Positions 57,097-64,000 of a DNA stretch of 64,000 nucleotides are shown one piece after another. Position numbers and translations under genes: made by a program. The DNA lies in assembly GCA_951802115.1 (NCBI GenBank), contig CATOPL010000001.1, positions 248,001 through 312,000 of the forward strand, read 5' to 3'. This DNA comes from an uncultured Lachnospiraceae bacterium. GTDB lineage: Bacteria; Bacillota; Clostridia; Lachnospirales; Lachnospiraceae. How positions within the stretch are numbered: the first letter of the stretch is position 1; each line of letters starts with the position of its first letter. A model generated the notes under the pieces. That model did not search any database, was not told the DNA's origin, and was given only the letters and a program-made list of their open reading frames with translations.

Positions 57097-58947
57097 CTAT
57101 CGTATTTCGATCGGAAGCAGTGACTGCACGGAGATTTCGATCTCCACCACTGCTCCTCCCTGACTGTATTGTTTCATTTTTCCATTCATTTCATCCACAA
57201 TCACAGATTCGATTACCATCATCCCAATACCTGTATTCTGTGAGTTCTGACAGGTCTTATTCATAAACCCTTTCCCGTTATCTCTGTATTGAATTCTGAC
57301 AAACCGGTCCTCCAATGCCCTGCTGACCTGAATCCTGATCTCCAGATTTCTTTTATGCTCATTATGCTTGATGCTGTTGTTGATCAGTTCATTAATAACC
57401 ATCGCAATCGATATCACTTTTGAATACGGGATCAAAATTTCATCAAGTGTCAGATAAAGTTTCGCACGGCTCTGATAAAAATCATTGATTTTATGAATGA
57501 TACGGGAAAGACTGTAAATGCCTGTATTTCCGGCAGGATTTGTCAAAAGCTTGTGAATTCCCGCAATACAGCTGATCCTGCTGATATTACTGGAAAAGAT
57601 CGCATCAATTTCTTTCATGGTTTCTTCATCCAGATCCTTGTTGCAGATAACCAGCTTTTCCATTTCCAGAAGACTTACAATAATCTGCAGATTATTCATA
57701 ATCCTGTGATGCCCTTCCTGCAGAAGAAGCGAATTTTCCCGCTGCTGCATCCTTTCCATAGACAGCACCATTTCATCCGCAATCCACCTGGTCATTATGG
57801 TAATATACTCCATATCCGCATCTGCCTTCTGAAAATCAATCTGCAGTACCAAAAGATTATCATCTCCTACCTGCACTGCATAACACGCAGACAGTTCATG
57901 ATCTGCATATCCGTCAAAATACCTGTTAAAGTCAGGATCGCTCTTTTTAAAAAAAGACACCGCATCCTTCTGGCTGTCCGCACACTTCAGAAGCATCTTC
58001 TTGTTCAGCAACGTAATCCGTTCTCTTTCTTCCGCCTCCATACCGCTGACTGCCACAACATCCGTCACCGTTTTCTGCGCTGCGCTGACCAGAACCGCCG
58101 CCACCGCTTTGGCCTGTAACTCCATTTTTAAATATTCAGAAAACATTCCGACCGCTTTTTTATAGTTGTGATTGCTGGATACCATTTTGACGCTGTGTTT
58201 TATGTTCTGCAAAGCAATCAGCCCTTTTTTGAATCTCCGGTTGTCCAAAAGACTCTGATGCGAACTCACACACAGATCATATATCCGCCCCGGATCGTTG
58301 CTGACTTCCTGTGCCGTGAACGTTTTTATATAATTTCCTTCAAGCACCACGCTGACATCGCTGTTTAAACGAACTGCCTCTTCCCATTGATTTGTCAAAT
58401 ACACCACCGTGGTTCCCTGCTCATTCAAGATCTGCAGAACCTCTACAAGTTTATAGAACAACGGCGCAGACAGAATGCTGTTTAATTCTCTGATCACAAG
58501 CAGCTTTGGCCTCTGATATACCGCTCTTAAGATTTCCACAACCTTACACTGTTCCACCGTCAGTTCCCTGACGGAAGCATCCAGATCAATTTCAAATTTG
58601 GTCTCCTGCAGAAGGCTTCTGAACATTTTTTTTCTTTTCCCGCGTGTCGCTTTATGACGACATGAATCTGTAAAAATATTTTCCCCGACATTCATATTGG
58701 GAAACACATTGTTGGCGGCCGTAATAAAACAACAGTACCGACGTACAAATTTTTTGTCAAGCTTCACTCCGTCATATTCGATGGTCCCTTCTGTCAGACG
58801 TCTTTTCTGCATAAACACTTCTGTCAATTCATCAAAAAATGTGCTGTTCGTGCATAGTATGACTCTTCTTGTACAGGCGTCCTGCTCAAACTGAAAATGA
58901 CGGATGATATCTCCAGATTCACTCGAAATTTTATTGATCGTAAACAC
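57097..58947 (-). CDS. Soluble histidine kinase with pseudo-ABC (RbsA-like) N-terminus
   Basis: Protein of 616 residues, no membrane segment. Residues 1-225 align with a sugar-importer ATPase (RbsA type): NVFPNMNVGENIF, ELTVEQCKVVEIL (signature-like), LLVIRELNSILS (Walker B-like), VVYLTNQWEEAV. All catalytic points are degenerate: no Walker A glycines/lysine, no Q-loop Gln, Asp of Walker B is Arg, H-loop His is Asn. Residues about 260-395 look like a GAF-type module. A HisKA_2 phospho-acceptor region (EGHHRIMNNLQIIVSLLEME, His413/414) and a HATPase domain follow (NELINNSIKH, RDNGKGF, TGIGM). The start is GTG at 58947 after AGGACC. It is 9 bases after the ANTAR regulator gene, its evident partner. 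Its likely input is the state of a sugar ABC transporter (inference). Confidence 0.85.
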   Translation of the reverse strand: MFTINKISSESGDIIRHFQFEQDACTRRVILCTNSTFFDELTEVFMQKRRLTEGTIEYDGVKLDKKFVRRYCCFITAANNVFPNMNVGENIFTDSCRHKATRGKRKKMFRSLLQETKFEIDLDASVRELTVEQCKVVEILRAVYQRPKLLVIRELNSILSAPLFYKLVEVLQILNEQGTTVVYLTNQWEEAVRLNSDVSVVLEGNYIKTFTAQEVSNDPGRIYDLCVSSHQSLLDNRRFKKGLIALQNIKHSVKMVSSNHNYKKAVGMFSEYLKMELQAKAVAAVLVSAAQKTVTDVVAVSGMEAEERERITLLNKKMLLKCADSQKDAVSFFKKSDPDFNRYFDGYADHELSACYAVQVGDDNLLVLQIDFQKADADMEYITIMTRWIADEMVLSMERMQQRENSLLLQEGHHRIMNNLQIIVSLLEMEKLVICNKDLDEETMKEIDAIFSSNISRISCIAGIHKLLTNPAGNTGIYSLSRIIHKINDFYQSRAKLYLTLDEILIPYSKVISIAMVINELINNSIKHNEHKRNLEIRIQVSRALEDRFVRIQYRDNGKGFMNKTCQNSQNTGIGMMVIESVIVDEMNGKMKQYSQGGAVVEIEISVQSLLPIEIR

Positions 58948-58956
58948 GCTTTGGTC

Positions 58957-59541
58957 CTACCCTCCAAATTTATTGTTCGCACTGATAATTTCCTGTGCAA
59001 CAATCTCTATTTTTTCTCTCCTTTTTTTAGCCATATTCTGCAGCCGTTTCATCGCCTCGCTTTCCTTTACTCCAAATTCGTCCATCAAAATTCCCTTTGC
59101 ACGCTCGATATCCTTCCTGTTTTTAAGAGCCATTTCGCTCTTTTCTGCTCTCTGGCATTCCTCGATATAAGCCTCCGCCCGGCTCCATGCAATGTTGATC
59201 CCTGCCGCAAGAGCCTCTCTTGTAACCGGCTTCATCATATAACCGAATACACACTGACAGTTTGCCTTCACAATCAGATCGTCATCAAAATATCCAGTAA
59301 TCACAATAGTAGGAATCATTTTTTCCAGACAGGCCTCTCTGACGACAGTCAAACCGTCTTTGCCAGGAATATTGATATCAACCAGTACCATATCCGGGAC
59401 TGTTTTCCTGATTCTGTCCACAGCAGACAATCCCTCGACTGCTTTTCCCGCCACCTCGTTCCCCATTGCCTCAATAAACAAACAAATGCTCCGAAGAATA
59501 ATGGCTTCATCTTCAACAACGAAAATTCTCAGCTTTTTCAT
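58957..59541 (-). CDS. ANTAR-domain response regulator (antiterminator)
   Basis: Regulator of 194 residues. The receiver domain (1-120) has VVEDEA, phospho-acceptor Asp in MVLVDINIPGKDG, Thr in VITGYF and Lys in MMKPVT. A short coiled segment leads to an ANTAR RNA-binding domain (NRKDIERAKGILMDEFG, SEAMKRLQNMAKKRREKI). Such proteins (EutV, AmiR, NasR) bind paired hairpins in nascent RNA and prevent termination. The start follows AGGAGGATTTTC. Probable partner: the HisKA_2 kinase encoded next. Target hairpins are probably in the operon leader, outside the window. Confidence 0.94.
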   Translation of the reverse strand: MKKLRIFVVEDEAIILRSICLFIEAMGNEVAGKAVEGLSAVDRIRKTVPDMVLVDINIPGKDGLTVVREACLEKMIPTIVITGYFDDDLIVKANCQCVFGYMMKPVTREALAAGINIAWSRAEAYIEECQRAEKSEMALKNRKDIERAKGILMDEFGVKESEAMKRLQNMAKKRREKIEIVAQEIISANNKFGG

Positions 59542-59569: not shown

Positions 59570-59606
59570 GTAAACTATTATACCACATCTTCGCTTGATA
59601 GTTTAC
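59570..59606 (-). promoter_or_regulatory. Internal promoter and inverted repeat before the two-component pair
   Basis: Minus strand TGGTATAAT is an extended -10 (TATAAT) about 35 nt upstream of the regulator start. It is flanked by perfect 9-base inverted arms GTAAACTAT (59598-59606) and ATAGTTTAC (59570-59578), the first overlapping the stop codon of the upstream isomerase gene. No convincing -35 box. Confidence 0.5.
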
Positions 59607-60394
59607 TGCTTCTTTTCCCATATCGGCAAAACGCTGCGTATCATTGAGTCGAAGCGTGACGCTTCCCAGGCGCTTCTTCCAATAAACAGGCCATCAATAT
59701 TTTTCATTCTGATCAGCTCCGGCGCGTTATCAGGATTCACGCTGCCTCCATAAAGAATCGGAATCCGGTCTCCGTTTTCTTTACCGAACAGCTCTGTCAG
59801 ACACGCGCGGATCACCCCATGCTTTTCCTGAGCATATTCCTTTGATGCCGGCACTCCGTCAACGCCGATCGCCCACACAGGTTCGTAGGCGATCCACAGC
59901 CTTTTGCTCTTCTCCCCGGACACGCCCCGCAGACCAAGCTTTAACTGGCTGCGAAGTATTTCATCAGAAATCCCTGTTTCTTTTTCCTTCCTGGTCTCAC
60001 CGATACAAAGCAACGGCGTAAACCCATGGAGAAGCGCACAGAGCACCTTCCTGTTTTCCATATCGTCTGTCTCACCGAGAACATGACGGCGCTCTGAATG
60101 ACCAATCATTACGATCTCTGCGCCCACTTCTTTCAGCATCAGAGGTGAAATCTCACCGCTGAACTGTCCTTCCTCTTCCCAACCCATATTCTGCGCACCC
60201 AAACGGATCCGACCTGAAGCAACGCACTTTTTTGCTTCCTGCAGCGTTGTAAATGAAGGAAGCACAAATAATTCCAGATTCTCTCTGCCGATATCTTTTG
60301 TGTGCCTGTCCAATTCTGTCAGAAAGGTTCTCGTATCTGCGATTGTCTTGTACATTTTGGTATTCGTTCCAAGATACAGTTTTTTCAGCTTCAT
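59603..60394 (-). CDS. Triosephosphate-isomerase-like tetrulose-phosphate isomerase (EryH type)
   Basis: TIM-barrel protein of 263 residues. Catalytic parts are present: the N-terminal lysine in LGTNTKMYKT, MIGHSERRHVLGE, AYEPVWAIGVDG and LYGGSVNP. GTNTKMYKT (not GNWKMN), GAQNMGWEEEGQFSGEISP and the ending IDGLFIGRSAW resemble EryH (L-erythrulose-1-phosphate isomerase) more than glycolytic TpiA. It is next to an EryI-like RpiB, the same pair as in erythritol catabolism. The subfamily call is by remembered motif resemblance. Confidence 0.85.
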   Translation of the reverse strand: MKLKKLYLGTNTKMYKTIADTRTFLTELDRHTKDIGRENLELFVLPSFTTLQEAKKCVASGRIRLGAQNMGWEEEGQFSGEISPLMLKEVGAEIVMIGHSERRHVLGETDDMENRKVLCALLHGFTPLLCIGETRKEKETGISDEILRSQLKLGLRGVSGEKSKRLWIAYEPVWAIGVDGVPASKEYAQEKHGVIRACLTELFGKENGDRIPILYGGSVNPDNAPELIRMKNIDGLFIGRSAWEASRFDSMIRSVLPIWEKKQ

Positions 60395-60411
60395 AAATAG
60401 TTTCCTTCCTT

Positions 60412-60849
60412 TCAGCGGGCCAGATCATACTCATGATAGCGGGCGAATTTGGGAGCAGAAGAGGACTCGGGATCAAAAGTACACGCCAACCATACTTTCA
60501 ATAATTCTTCTGCCAGCTTTTCCCCGATCGTAAATGCTCCTATACAGGCAATATTGGCATTATTGCTAAGCGCTGCGCGCTGTGCAGAATAAACATCTGT
60601 CAGCAGTGCGGCATATGCGCCTTTTACTTTATTTGCCGCAATGCTCATGCCCAGGCCTGTTCCGCAGACGAGTACGCCGCGGTCTCCCTTTCCCGCCGCA
60701 ACCGCCTCCGATACTTTAATCGCAACATTTGCATAAACCGGATCGCTGCTTCCCATGTCAATCACTTCATGTCCAAGAGTTTCAACTGCCTTTATCAGCT
60801 TATATTTTAATTCATCCGCATTGGGATCGCACCCAAAAAGTAATTTCAT
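60412..60849 (-). CDS. RpiB/LacAB-type sugar-phosphate isomerase (EryI-like)
   Basis: Isomerase of 145 residues. RpiB-fold motifs: VLVCGTGLGMSIAANKVKG (active-site Cys and phosphate loop) and SAQRAALSNNANIACIGAF. Asp-Pro at the N-terminal CDPNAD replaces the RpiB CDHAG pattern; VYANVAIKVSEAV and TFDPESSSA are like EryI/DerI, which convert D-erythrulose-4-phosphate to erythrose-4-phosphate. It is 17 bases upstream of the EryH-like gene; the ribosome site is TGGAGG. Confidence 0.87.
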   Translation of the reverse strand: MKLLFGCDPNADELKYKLIKAVETLGHEVIDMGSSDPVYANVAIKVSEAVAAGKGDRGVLVCGTGLGMSIAANKVKGAYAALLTDVYSAQRAALSNNANIACIGAFTIGEKLAEELLKVWLACTFDPESSSAPKFARYHEYDLAR

Positions 60850-60929
60850 AAAACCTCCATTTCTCTGTCAGAAAGCAGTTCACAAACACACTTTAACCTG
60901 ACAGTACAAACAATAAAATTCTTCCCGTC

Positions 60930-62168
60930 TCAATGTTTCCTTTTTTTATCTTCCAACAGAATATTCGCCAAAACCATCGCCAGCGCATACAGCATGGCAA
61001 GCATCATGATTACACTCTGATAACTGCCGGTGGAATCATAGATAAATCCAAAAACAGTACCGGCTGTTCCTGCTATGATCCCTCCCAGCAAAACAACATT
61101 TGCATTGATTCTCTCGTAATCCTCTGAATCCCCAAATACCTCGTAACACATGGCAGTTGTTTCAATCAGCCCGCATTTCAGAGCAATACCAAACAAAAAT
61201 CCAAGCATATAAATCATTTCCAGCGGCGGATGTTCTATAAATCTCAGGCAAAGCGATGCCGCAATCCCTATACCGGTACACAGAAACGTCGAATTTCTGA
61301 CCCCGATTTTTTCATTCAAAAAGCTCAGTCCAACTCTTGACACAAGACCTCCGAAATGACACACTGAGGCAAATACTGCTCCCAGCGCAGCTGAAAGTCC
61401 CAGGGTTTTTCCATAATTTCCCAGATGATTCTGCATTCCCACACAATACTGAATGGCAATCAGATAAAGTACTGCCAGATAAAACTTCTTCGCACGCCAT
61501 GCTGATTTCACAGTAAGGTCGCAACCGCCGGCTGCATGTTTTTTCTCTGCTGCAGTCCATCCGCAGCCAGTGTTTTCATAAGGCTGCAGACCGATTGATT
61601 CAGGCCCTTCTTTCATAATTAGCACCGTACCGACAGCTCCGGCTGCAAGGACATACACTGCCAGACATCTGTATGCCGCACGCCACCCTGCAGAATATGT
61701 AATCGCGCCTGCCATGGGAGTAAACAGCACTCCCCCCAGCATGGAAGCTGTAATAAATATCCCCAAAACAAATTCTCCTTTGTCCCGGAACCATCTTTTT
61801 ACGATAACCGTAGGAAGTACATAGATAAAACATGCTACTCCAAAACTCTCCATAAATCCTGCCCCGATCATCATATAAATATTCTCCGACAGAGAATACA
61901 GCAGCAGCCCGCACGCCTGGATAAGTAGAAATATGCAAAGCAGCTTCCTGACTGAATATTTTTGAAAAAGTCCTGCGCAAAGAGGCGTGACGAACATCGC
62001 TGCAAACGGCCCGATAGAATACATAAAGGAAACTGTTGTAACACTTACTCCCAGGCTCTCCGCTACCGGCAGTAAAAATACGCTGGGCACCGTTAACTGC
62101 GCTCCTATTCCAACTGTCATCAGACACGAAAAAAACGCAACGATCCACGCATAATGTATTCTCTTCAA
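60930..62168 (-). CDS. MFS transporter
   Basis: Major facilitator of 412 residues with 12 hydrophobic segments in the classical 6+6 layout. The start codon is TTG (62168), supported by AAGGAACCGGAT. The N-terminus HYAWIVAFFSCLMTVGIG is like oxalate/formate antiporter-type MFS members. It probably takes up or exchanges the substrate or an acid product of this operon; specificity is not visible. Confidence 0.88.
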   Translation of the reverse strand: MKRIHYAWIVAFFSCLMTVGIGAQLTVPSVFLLPVAESLGVSVTTVSFMYSIGPFAAMFVTPLCAGLFQKYSVRKLLCIFLLIQACGLLLYSLSENIYMMIGAGFMESFGVACFIYVLPTVIVKRWFRDKGEFVLGIFITASMLGGVLFTPMAGAITYSAGWRAAYRCLAVYVLAAGAVGTVLIMKEGPESIGLQPYENTGCGWTAAEKKHAAGGCDLTVKSAWRAKKFYLAVLYLIAIQYCVGMQNHLGNYGKTLGLSAALGAVFASVCHFGGLVSRVGLSFLNEKIGVRNSTFLCTGIGIAASLCLRFIEHPPLEMIYMLGFLFGIALKCGLIETTAMCYEVFGDSEDYERINANVVLLGGIIAGTAGTVFGFIYDSTGSYQSVIMMLAMLYALAMVLANILLEDKKRKH

Positions 62169-62220
62169 ATCCGGTTCCTTCTTTCCGTAAATTTATAATC
62201 TCCCCTTCAATCCGCCCGAG

Positions 62221-62255
62221 CATCAAAAGGAGCTGCATTTTCCGACAGCCCCTTT
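62221..62255 (-). terminator. Hairpin attenuator between dehydrogenase and MFS genes
   Basis: Minus strand AAAGGGGCTG / CAGCTCCTTT is a 10-bp stem with one wobble and a roughly 10-base loop, followed by TTTTGATG. It lies inside the operon and could be a partial terminator lowering MFS expression or a site of antitermination. Confidence 0.6.
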
Positions 62256-62270
62256 CCATCCGTTTCCGAT

Positions 62271-63407
62271 TCAGATTTTAACCCAGGCTCTCTTTTTTTT
62301 GGATTCTCTTACTGCATCGCATACTTTGATGACTTCCAGTGCATCACAGAAATCCGGTGTATACTTGGTGCCGTTTACACATGCATTAACTGCCTCGTAA
62401 GCCTGGAACGACATGCAGTCCACCACACCAACGCCAAATCCCGCCAGAGGCGGAACTGCTTGTCCATAAGGATGAGCCGGTCCCATCAGAATCGATTTTG
62501 TTCCGTCTGTCTCCGGATCTTTGGTATTCAAAGCCAGCTGGAATACAGACGGATTTGCTCCGGACCAGCGCACCATACCTTTGGTTCCGCAAACTTCAAA
62601 GGAGATATCCTCGCCGGCTCCGGCATATGCACTGGACTGATACAACGTCGCGGTGACGCCGGATTTCATCCTGGCAATGATCATGGACATATCTTCCGCA
62701 TCCCGTTCATGCCGGACCGGTTCCCCGCCGTCTTTGGAAGCCTCAAAAGCTTCATTCCAGAATACTTCCGTTGTTCCGACTACTTCGTCATACTGATCAT
62801 CCAGAATAAACCTGCACATGTCGACAATATGACTGCAGGAATCCGCGAATCCGCCGCCGGTCAGGATATTGCTTCTGAAAGTATAATATTTTGCAAATTC
62901 ATCGCCGCCTCCCTGAAGATATCTTCCATTGTAGGTCAGTGGAGTTCCGATCACTCCGTCTTTGATCAGTTTTCTGGCAAAATTCACGGCCGGCCAGCGC
63001 CTCTTGTTGAAAGCCACCGCAGAACGTCCATGATATTCTTTTGTGGCTGCAACCAGTTTTTCACAGTCTTCCACGGTTGTGGTCAGCGGTTTTTCAGACA
63101 TTACAAATTTTCCCGCTTTCATGGCTTCAATGGCAATCTCCGAATGCAGATTGGGCGGCACACAGATATCAACGATATCAATATCATCTCTTGCGATTAC
63201 TTCTTTCCAGTCTGTACACCACTCTTCATATCCCCACTGTTCCGCGTTTTTCCGGACCGCCGTTTCATTGATGTCACAGATCAGTTTTTTTACGGGAACC
63301 GCCGCGATATCCGGAAAAATCACCGGCGCCAGCGAGTACGCTTTAGAATGCTCGCTGCCCATAAAACCCACACCAATCAAAGCTACATTAACTGTTTTTC
63401 TGCCCAT
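62271..63407 (-). CDS. Gfo/Idh/MocA family oxidoreductase
   Basis: NAD(P)-dependent sugar or polyol dehydrogenase of 378 residues. Rossmann motif VALIGVGFMGSEHSKAY at the N-terminus, the conserved MSEKPLTTT (EKP) near residue 100 and GGGFADSCSHIVDMCRFI with the catalytic histidine. The operon context (sugar-binding protein, EryH- and EryI-like isomerases) points to oxidation of a polyol or sugar entering the pathway. The exact substrate is unknown. Confidence 0.92.
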   Translation of the reverse strand: MGRKTVNVALIGVGFMGSEHSKAYSLAPVIFPDIAAVPVKKLICDINETAVRKNAEQWGYEEWCTDWKEVIARDDIDIVDICVPPNLHSEIAIEAMKAGKFVMSEKPLTTTVEDCEKLVAATKEYHGRSAVAFNKRRWPAVNFARKLIKDGVIGTPLTYNGRYLQGGGDEFAKYYTFRSNILTGGGFADSCSHIVDMCRFILDDQYDEVVGTTEVFWNEAFEASKDGGEPVRHERDAEDMSMIIARMKSGVTATLYQSSAYAGAGEDISFEVCGTKGMVRWSGANPSVFQLALNTKDPETDGTKSILMGPAHPYGQAVPPLAGFGVGVVDCMSFQAYEAVNACVNGTKYTPDFCDALEVIKVCDAVRESKKKRAWVKI

Positions 63408-63438: not shown

Positions 63439-64000
63439 TTAATCCGACATTCCGATCGATTCGAAATATGCGAGTAATTCTTCTGCTCTTTTAAGGTCAA
63501 CTGTCTCTGCGTCAAATTCAATTTTCTCCGTATAGTTTACCAGGTCCAGCTCTCCGTCCGCATAAGGAGAGAGCAGATCGTCAAAGATGATGTCTGCGAA
63601 TGTTATCGCCGACTGCAGCACGGTACCGGCCAGCTCTCCGTCGATAACGGCCTGACAGCCTTCAGCCAGGCCGTTGATGCCGTAAATCTTAATCTTGGAA
63701 GTGTCTTTTCCATTGGTGACAAGAGACTCATATGCCCCCAGTGCCATACCGTCATCTTCCGCCATCACACCGTCAATCTGATCATAAGCCTGAATCCAGT
63801 CATCCATCAGAGCCATTGCTTTGGCTTTATCAAAGTCGGCATAAGAATCTGCAAGGACCTCAATGTCCGGACGCTCAGCCAGAAGTCCGTCCTCATAGCC
63901 GGCCCTGCGACCGGTTGAAGCGTCAATGCCCGCCATGCCCTGAAGAATTACGATCTTCGCATTCTCAGGAAGTTCTTTTGCCGCCTGCTGACCGGAAGCA
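63439..64000 (-). CDS. Sugar ABC transporter substrate-binding protein, 5' part outside window
   Basis: C-terminal 187 residues of a Peripla_BP_4-type (RbsB-like) binding protein: ILQGMAGIDASTGRRAGYED, IDGVMAEDDGMALGAYESL and GINGLAEGCQAVIDGELAGT. The signal peptide and N-lobe lie beyond the right edge. The ATG at 63936 is internal and not the start. It is the first visible gene of the operon; the cognate permease and true ATPase are expected upstream, outside the window. RbsB-type binding proteins pair with RbsA-type ATPases, the same family that gave rise to the N-terminus of the kinase at 57097. Confidence 0.88.
   Translation of the reverse strand, partial: ASGQQAAKELPENAKIVILQGMAGIDASTGRRAGYEDGLLAERPDIEVLADSYADFDKAKAMALMDDWIQAYDQIDGVMAEDDGMALGAYESLVTNGKDTSKIKIYGINGLAEGCQAVIDGELAGTVLQSAITFADIIFDDLLSPYADGELDLVNYTEKIEFDAETVDLKRAEELLAYFESIGMSD

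What the first reader, a model, noticed from the sequence alone, without database searches (positions are those of the whole stretch)
57097..59541. Two-component system whose kinase is built on a dead sugar-importer ATPase
The kinase N-terminus follows an RbsA-type ABC domain along its length (GENIF, LTVEQ, Walker-B- and H-loop-like segments), yet every nucleotide-handling residue is lost. It is soluble and fused through a GAF-like module to a HisKA_2/HATPase kinase. The partner is an ANTAR antiterminator, and the operon begins with an RbsB-type binding protein. Inference: the pseudo-ATPase docks on the permease (or on the real ATPase) and reports transport to the RNA-binding regulator, a direct transporter-to-antitermination circuit.
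Basis: partly seen in the sequence, partly recalled or inferred. Interest (0 to 1): 0.88.

Follow-up and report, generated by a model that had tools for sequence, protein, structure and literature searches.

The report
Sugar-importer ATPase turned kinase sensor
A bacterium and its relatives have fused a broken copy of a sugar-importer motor protein to a signalling kinase that, with a partner RNA-binding protein, probably switches on the genes of the sugar importer itself, which suggests that cells can use a dead transporter part as a sensor.

The parts
57097..58947 (-). Fusion kinase, 616 aa: pseudo-ABC ATPase, GAF-like region, HisKA_2, HATPase_c
58255..58947 (-). Residues 1-231: ABC nucleotide-binding-domain fold without Walker-A Lys, Walker-B Asp, Q-loop Gln, H-loop His
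57748..58170 (-). GAF-like region, about residues 260-400 (placed from the model and from GAF hits in relatives)
57529..57717 (-). HisKA_2 phosphoacceptor domain, residues 411-473
57130..57411 (-). HATPase_c kinase domain, residues 513-606
58957..59541 (-). Response regulator with receiver and ANTAR RNA-binding domain, 194 aa, 9 nt upstream of the fusion
58984..59136 (-). ANTAR domain, residues 136-186
59603..60394 (-). Triosephosphate-isomerase family gene, same directon
60412..60849 (-). RpiB-family sugar-phosphate isomerase
60930..62168 (-). MFS transporter
62271..63407 (-). Gfo/Idh-type oxidoreductase (nearest NCBIfam: levoglucosan dehydrogenase, below cut-off)
63439..63999 (-). 3' part of the RbsB-type binding protein; RbsC, RbsA, DhaL, DhaK, two more genes and the leader RNA continue beyond the window (L106 6539-14080)

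Best explanation
A two-component antitermination system whose kinase is driven by a pseudo-ATPase taken from an importer of the kind that it controls. SHOWN by sequence: an ATPase domain of the RbsA N-terminal type, in most members stripped of catalytic residues, is fused through a GAF-type linker to a HisKA_2 kinase; an ANTAR regulator lies next to it; an RbsABC-type importer is in the locus; most loci hold a dual-hairpin/terminator RNA, as a rule upstream of importer genes. FROM KNOWN FAMILIES: the kinase phosphorylates the ANTAR regulator, which binds the hairpins and stops terminator formation, as EutW/EutV does. INFERRED: the pseudo-ATPase, in a kinase homodimer a pair of them, docks on the importer (on the permease, or on the real ATPase), and the state of the importer (engaged or moving substrate) sets kinase activity, so the importer reports to its own operon. 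In this genome the operon carries DhaK/DhaL, a TIM-type and an RpiB-type isomerase, which fits a four-carbon polyol or ketose as substrate (inference from gene content).
For: ABC fold and RbsA-N kinship. ANTAR regulator next to 40 of 40 full-length fusions (38 in the ORF table, L032 by tblastn, the window's own); RbsA or RbsC in 38 of 40 loci (the window's own, source of the query proteins, among them) against 0 of 8 control kinases that have HisKA_2, no ABC hit and an ANTAR regulator in the locus. Lys, Asp, Glu and His intact together in 1 of 40 fusions against 31 of 32 RbsA N-halves, while post-Q-loop [ED]N is kept in 37 of 40 fusions (28 of 32 in RbsA): the ATP-handling residues decay, another conserved stretch does not. 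RNA: 24 sequences, 90.7% of cells paired, 56 double-change cells against 15.2 in shuffles, 0 of 500 as high; a model of these finds 8 of 16 fusion loci not used for it at E <= 0.006; in whole genomes, E <= 1e-3 in 5 of 9 fusion genomes, each at the fusion locus (4 of the 5 hold training loci), and in 0 of 27 others. In 31 of 32 loci with a hit, an importer gene follows on the same strand, in 18 with no ORF of 150 aa or more between. Own operon head: two hairpins plus terminator, fold z -6.0. Second design with a standalone dead RbsA in 10 of 10 loci.
Against: No direct evidence of contact with permease or ATPase, and no complex could be predicted. The distance test favours the ATPase over the permease and loses its contrast with rank distances. 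The RNA model does not reach significance in the window's own genome (best E 1.6): the leader there was found by eye after seeing the pattern, and its hairpin part alone folds no better than many shuffles (z -1.0, 33 of 200). 8 of 16 loci outside the model gave no significant hit, 3 of these weak (E 0.3-0.8), 5 none, and I had already looked at seven of the eight that did. Four genomes without the fusion have weak hits, E 0.04-0.07. One member keeps all four ATPase residues (L139), so ATP may still matter in part of the family.
Confidence: 0.55

Rival explanations
1. The kinase senses a cytoplasmic ligand (imported sugar, a sugar phosphate) through the GAF domain; the pseudo-ATPase only localises the kinase at the importer or is a structural relic.
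For: GAF domains are recognisable in 3 of 3 relatives scanned and are classic ligand modules (established knowledge); most members of the family have lost catalytic residues of the ABC half.
Against: The ABC fold keeps high predicted confidence and has conserved residues of its own, such as Trp at the place of W188 in 29 of 40 fusions, where RbsA N-halves have Leu or Met; the domain is kept in 40 members with importer genes in 38 loci (the set was chosen as full-length, so this does not measure loss).
Confidence: 0.25
2. ATPase-only version of the best reading (a share of it, not additional): the pseudo-ATPase pairs with the real importer ATPase and not with the permease, and reports or competes with ATPase engagement.
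For: Distances of the ABC half and of RbsA stay correlated after control for regulator, kinase half, GC and RbsC (r 0.24, P 0.004); RbsC does not after control for RbsA (r -0.03, P 0.63).
Against: Homologous domains in one genome may share compositional bias that a GC covariate does not remove; with rank distances the kinase half also correlates with RbsA (r 0.22, P 0.024).
Confidence: 0.15
3. The ABC domain is a plain nucleotide sensor: it binds ATP without hydrolysis and reports energy state.
For: Walker-A Gly-Lys is kept in 11 of 40 and all four residues in one member.
Against: 29 of 40, the window's protein among them, lack the Walker-A Gly-Lys and 35 of 40 the Walker-B Asp.
Confidence: 0.05

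Closest known systems
EutW/EutV ethanolamine system (histidine kinase plus ANTAR antiterminator)
   Same: Kinase with ANTAR response regulator; leader with two hairpins, the second overlapping an intrinsic terminator (PMC3369931 and PMC8934654, passages read).
   Different: Input domain is a pseudo-ABC ATPase plus GAF; importer genes are the likely targets; loops here are UAYGRSU within a Y-G pair, so the conserved A sits at position 2 where EutV targets have it at position 1 of a hexaloop.
PdtaS/PdtaR-type kinases with ANTAR regulators (name from Pfam GAF_PdtaS; system recalled)
   Same: HisKA_2 kinase with ANTAR regulator in the locus; 7 of the 8 control kinases carry GAF_PdtaS.
   Different: No ABC domain in the controls and no RbsA, RbsB or RbsC in their loci.
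BceAB-BceS flux sensing
   Same: An ABC transporter passes its state to a histidine kinase that controls the transporter genes (PMC6978683, passages read).
   Different: Separate proteins, membrane kinase (recalled), a bacitracin-resistance transporter, DNA-binding regulator.
PstSCAB-PhoU-PhoR
   Same: Importer state reported to a kinase, with contact to the ATPase PstB (PMC6978683, passages read).
   Different: An adaptor (PhoU) bridges; no pseudo-ATPase.
XylFII-LytS and similar repurposed binding proteins
   Same: A binding protein of the kind used by sugar importers serves as kinase input (PMC6321045, passages read).
   Different: There the extracellular binding protein, here the cytoplasmic ATPase.

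Membership tests
HisKA_2 histidine kinases | HisKA_2 phosphoacceptor plus HATPase_c above Pfam cut-off | tested here: met
   38.4 and 39.7 bits against 22.3 and 26.4; H413 H414 R415, N519 E520 N524 and D556 G558 G560 invariant in the alignment of 46
ANTAR response regulators | Receiver plus ANTAR domain | tested here: met
   61.6 and 52.4 bits against 30.2 and 27.3
ABC ATPases by fold | ABC nucleotide-binding-domain fold | tested here: met
Active ABC ATPases | Walker-A Lys, Walker-B Asp-Glu, Q-loop Gln, H-loop His | tested here: not met
   Window protein keeps only the Glu
EutV-type ANTAR antitermination | Dual hairpin upstream of, and overlapping, a terminator | tested here: met
   Dual hairpins in 32 of 40 loci with covariation; overlap with a terminator passed a strict test in 7 loci and is seen by eye in others; window's own operon by eye and fold
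EutV-type ANTAR antitermination | Hexaloops with A1 and G4 | tested here: inconclusive
   One A and one G in each loop are invariant in 24 of 24, but the loop is read as 7 nt with A at position 2 and G at position 4
EutV-type ANTAR antitermination | Binding of the regulator to the RNA | not testable with these tools
   Needs a bench test
Transporter-coupled kinases (Bce, Pst type) | Physical complex with the transporter | not testable with these tools
   No complex prediction on hand

The most novel reading that the evidence does not exclude
Dead ATPases of sugar importers form a general input class of bacterial two-component systems, used in at least two designs: fused to a HisKA_2 kinase that controls ANTAR antitermination, and as a separate two-domain protein beside a kinase with no recognised sensor domain and an AraC-type regulator. 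In the fused form the kinase homodimer presents two mock nucleotide-binding domains to the two-fold symmetric permease and reads the importer's conformation directly.
Probability: 0.4. Interest if true: 0.92.

Novelty: new variant of a known kind. Interest (0 to 1): 0.8.

Why it matters
Bacteria must decide which sugar importer to make, and how a cytoplasmic kinase without a membrane sensor would learn this is open. If the importer's own dead ATPase relative is the sensor, the transporter is both pump and receptor, and the graded series from intact to dead gives a natural experiment on how an enzyme becomes a signalling part. The leader RNA gives a ready reporter and lets new ANTAR regulons be sought by model search. 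Titles place full-length fusions in Bacillus relatives, Clostridia, Halanaerobium and its kin and a Fusobacteriales bin.

Tried and rejected
Considered and rejected: chance similarity to ABC ATPases (fold, Pfam score and tree agree). A broken or misassembled gene: 39 other full-length relatives have the same domain order. Fusions away from sugar loci: 38 of 40 have importer genes.

Led nowhere or against me: viral contigs hold no relative that the tool confirmed. Rfam at gathering scores names no leader in 7 loci. A first hairpin scan with strict AxxGxx loops found one pair in the intergenic stretches listed; the loop was then read off the sequences, so the later scan pattern and model come from these same loci. 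A regex scan was misled by a greedy pattern and redone. The RNA model finds nothing significant in the window's own genome. In L065 the hit lies on the strand away from the regulator and no importer gene follows it. Distance-correlation tests are suggestive only. Nine paper searches (open-licence PMC full text only, titles and abstracts of the listings seen) showed no description of either design; sought XylFII-LytS only.

Rows dropped: of 74 loci, 35 entered the set of 40 full-length fusions; L044 and L064 (broken frames), L069 and L070 (no N-terminal part) and L071-L105 (kinase half only) did not. L108 duplicates L033. L110-L113 and L142-L144 repeat loci. Added: the window's own (L106), L109, L139, L140, L141. 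The 8 control kinases are the rows that match the kinase half without the ABC part.

Full report

The family. A protein search gave 25 hits, of which 21 align over 72-100% of the query. In the window's own family 3 of 299 sampled genera have a match over the kinase and ABC parts (at most four candidates per genome were scored, and the other listed hits are ABC ATPases); across the phylum it is 8 of 398 genomes, the window's own included and one (G499) with a broken frame (three candidates scored per genome). A scan of named genomes gave 74 loci, of which 35 are full-length fusions used here; titles name Claveliimonas, Faecalicatena, Christensenella, Butyricicoccus, Mesobacillus, Halalkalibacter, Gracilibacillus, Evansella, Psychrobacillus, Halanaerobium, Orenia and others. 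The set analysed is 40.

Context. An ANTAR regulator is next to all 40: 38 in the ORF table, L032 by tblastn (45% identity over 188 aa), the window's. With RbsA over 150 bits or RbsC over 55 bits as the rule, importer genes are in 38 of 40 loci (RbsA 34, RbsC 37, RbsB 26); the queries come from the window's own operon. The two misses, L036 and L054, have contigs that end 0.9 and 0.8 kb downstream; L036 shows nothing in the 9.8 kb on its other side, and L054 has a partial RbsA. As a control, 8 HisKA_2 kinases found have no ABC hit in Pfam, 8 of 8 have an ANTAR regulator in the locus, and 0 of 8 have an RbsA, RbsB or RbsC hit in 14-20 kb. So importer genes go with the ABC domain, not with ANTAR-linked kinases as such.

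Origin and decay of the ATPase domain. In a FastTree tree of 40 fusion domains, 32 RbsA N-halves and 32 RbsA C-halves, each set is one group; for L139 and L140 the nearest rows outside the fusions are RbsA N-halves. Support for the fusion group is only 70 and several end branches are long, the window's among them. Lys, Asp, Glu and His of the catalytic motifs are intact together in 1 of 40 fusions (L139) and in 31 of 32 RbsA N-halves from the same loci. The H-loop His is lost in 39 of 40, the Walker-B Asp in 35, the Walker-A Gly-Lys in 29; the Walker-B Glu stays in 35 of 40, the Q-loop Gln in 16. Kept or gained features are the post-Q-loop [ED]N (37 of 40; 28 of 32 in RbsA) and a Trp after the H-loop position (29 of 40; RbsA N-halves have Leu or Met). 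In known ABC importers the region after the Q-loop lies near the permease's coupling helix (recalled knowledge), which is why I favour docking.

The RNA. In many loci the stretch between the regulator and the transporter genes holds two hairpins with loop consensus Y-UAYGRSU-G, the second sharing its 3' arm with an intrinsic terminator. A simple scan, its pattern taken from these loci, found 13 tandem pairs, 7 with terminator, in 0.87 Mb of real sequence against 11 and 0 in 4.35 Mb of Markov-shuffled sequence. In 24 aligned leaders 90.7% of pair cells are standard pairs, 11 of 14 pairs show changes on both sides, and no shuffle of 500 reaches any of the five measures; slid controls pair 39-51%. 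A covariance model from these 24 finds 8 of the 16 fusion loci not used for it at E <= 0.006; three more are weak (E 0.3-0.8) and five have none, the window's own among these. I had looked at seven of the eight before building the model, and L053 is close to a training locus. Over all 40, 32 have a hit at E <= 0.02, 24 of them training loci. In 31 of the 32 an importer gene follows on the same strand, directly in 18 and after one to three ORFs of 150 aa or more in 13; in L065 none follows. In 36 whole genomes, hits at E <= 1e-3 fall in 5 of 9 fusion genomes, each at the fusion locus, and in 0 of 27 others; between 0.03 and 0.07 there is one more fusion locus (G299) and four other genomes. Four of the five fusion genomes hold training loci, so this tests specificity rather than reach. 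The second hairpin and the terminator exclude each other, as in the EutV model (PMC3369931, PMC8934654, passages read). L041 and L070 have a second model hit upstream.

The window's own operon. Genes run on the minus strand from L106 13944 to 197: serine hydrolase, isomerase/epimerase, DhaK, DhaL, RbsA, RbsC, RbsB, Gfo/Idh oxidoreductase, MFS, RpiB, TIM, regulator, fusion (the first four names, RbsA and RbsC are from my reading of the sequence, the rest). Just before the first gene, L106 14080-13960(-), two hairpins and a terminator-like stem of 16 pairs followed by seven T are seen; the stretch folds at z -6.0, 0 of 200 shuffles as low, but the hairpin part alone only at z -1.0, 33 of 200. 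I found this one by eye after knowing the pattern, and the model does not report it.

A second design. In the same genome L107 4883-6319(-) encodes a 478-aa protein with two degenerate ABC halves, next to a kinase with His_kinase and HATPase_c but no recognised sensor domain and an AraC-type regulator, beside TIM, RpiB and DhaL genes. Relatives at E <= 1e-40 occur in 9 of 299 genera of the family, 10 loci with this one; in 10 of 10 the dead ATPase lies directly by a related kinase of 333-355 aa, and the regulator is seen in 9 (not in L158, whose stretch ends 485 bases past the kinase). In the N-halves of these 10 the Walker-A glycines, the Walker-B Asp-Glu and the H-loop His of RbsA are lost in 10 of 10, while 7 of 10 still have Lys in the Walker-A Lys column. 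That a second kind of two-component system carries a dead sugar ATPase supports a role as input.

Co-divergence. On 31 loci, distances of the ABC half correlate with RbsC (partial r 0.24, P 0.005) and RbsA (0.33, P 0.001) after control for regulator, kinase half and GC; the kinase half does not (0.03, -0.01). With rank distances the ABC-RbsC link is 0.10 (P 0.15), ABC-RbsA 0.20 (P 0.016), and the kinase half correlates with RbsA too (0.22, P 0.024). Removing near-duplicates leaves ABC-RbsC at P 0.067 and ABC-RbsA at P 0.008. I count this as a hint only.

Verdict. The chain kinase, ANTAR regulator, RNA, importer operon is well supported by comparison. That the importer itself is what the pseudo-ATPase reads is the best explanation, not shown.

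Noticed in passing
L107 4883-8961 (G000:C5, same genome): Standalone two-domain dead RbsA beside a kinase with no recognised sensor domain and an AraC-type regulator; 10 of 10 related loci keep the dead ATPase next to such a kinase.
   Followed up: partly
L139 9173-11107, L140 9109-11151, L141 9130-11073: Fusions with nearly intact ATPase motifs (L139 has all four residues), the early end of a decay series.
   Followed up: partly
L041 8584-8709, L070 1755-1879; L045-L047 leaders: Leaders that seem to hold three hairpins of the ANTAR type rather than two; two model hits each in L041 and L070.
   Followed up: no
window 59603-63407 and L106 10167-11808: DhaK, DhaL, TIM-type and RpiB-type isomerases in one operon, like known erythritol/erythrulose pathways (recalled); substrate may be a four-carbon polyol.
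   Followed up: no
L147 8614-11538: A kinase without ABC domain flanked by two regulators that both match the ANTAR regulator.
   Followed up: no
L034 9782-9828: A further hairpin pair of the same model upstream of the fusion gene itself, as if the kinase gene were also a target.
   Followed up: no
L055 1195-1384: Cobalamin riboswitch, unrelated to the fusion.
   Followed up: no
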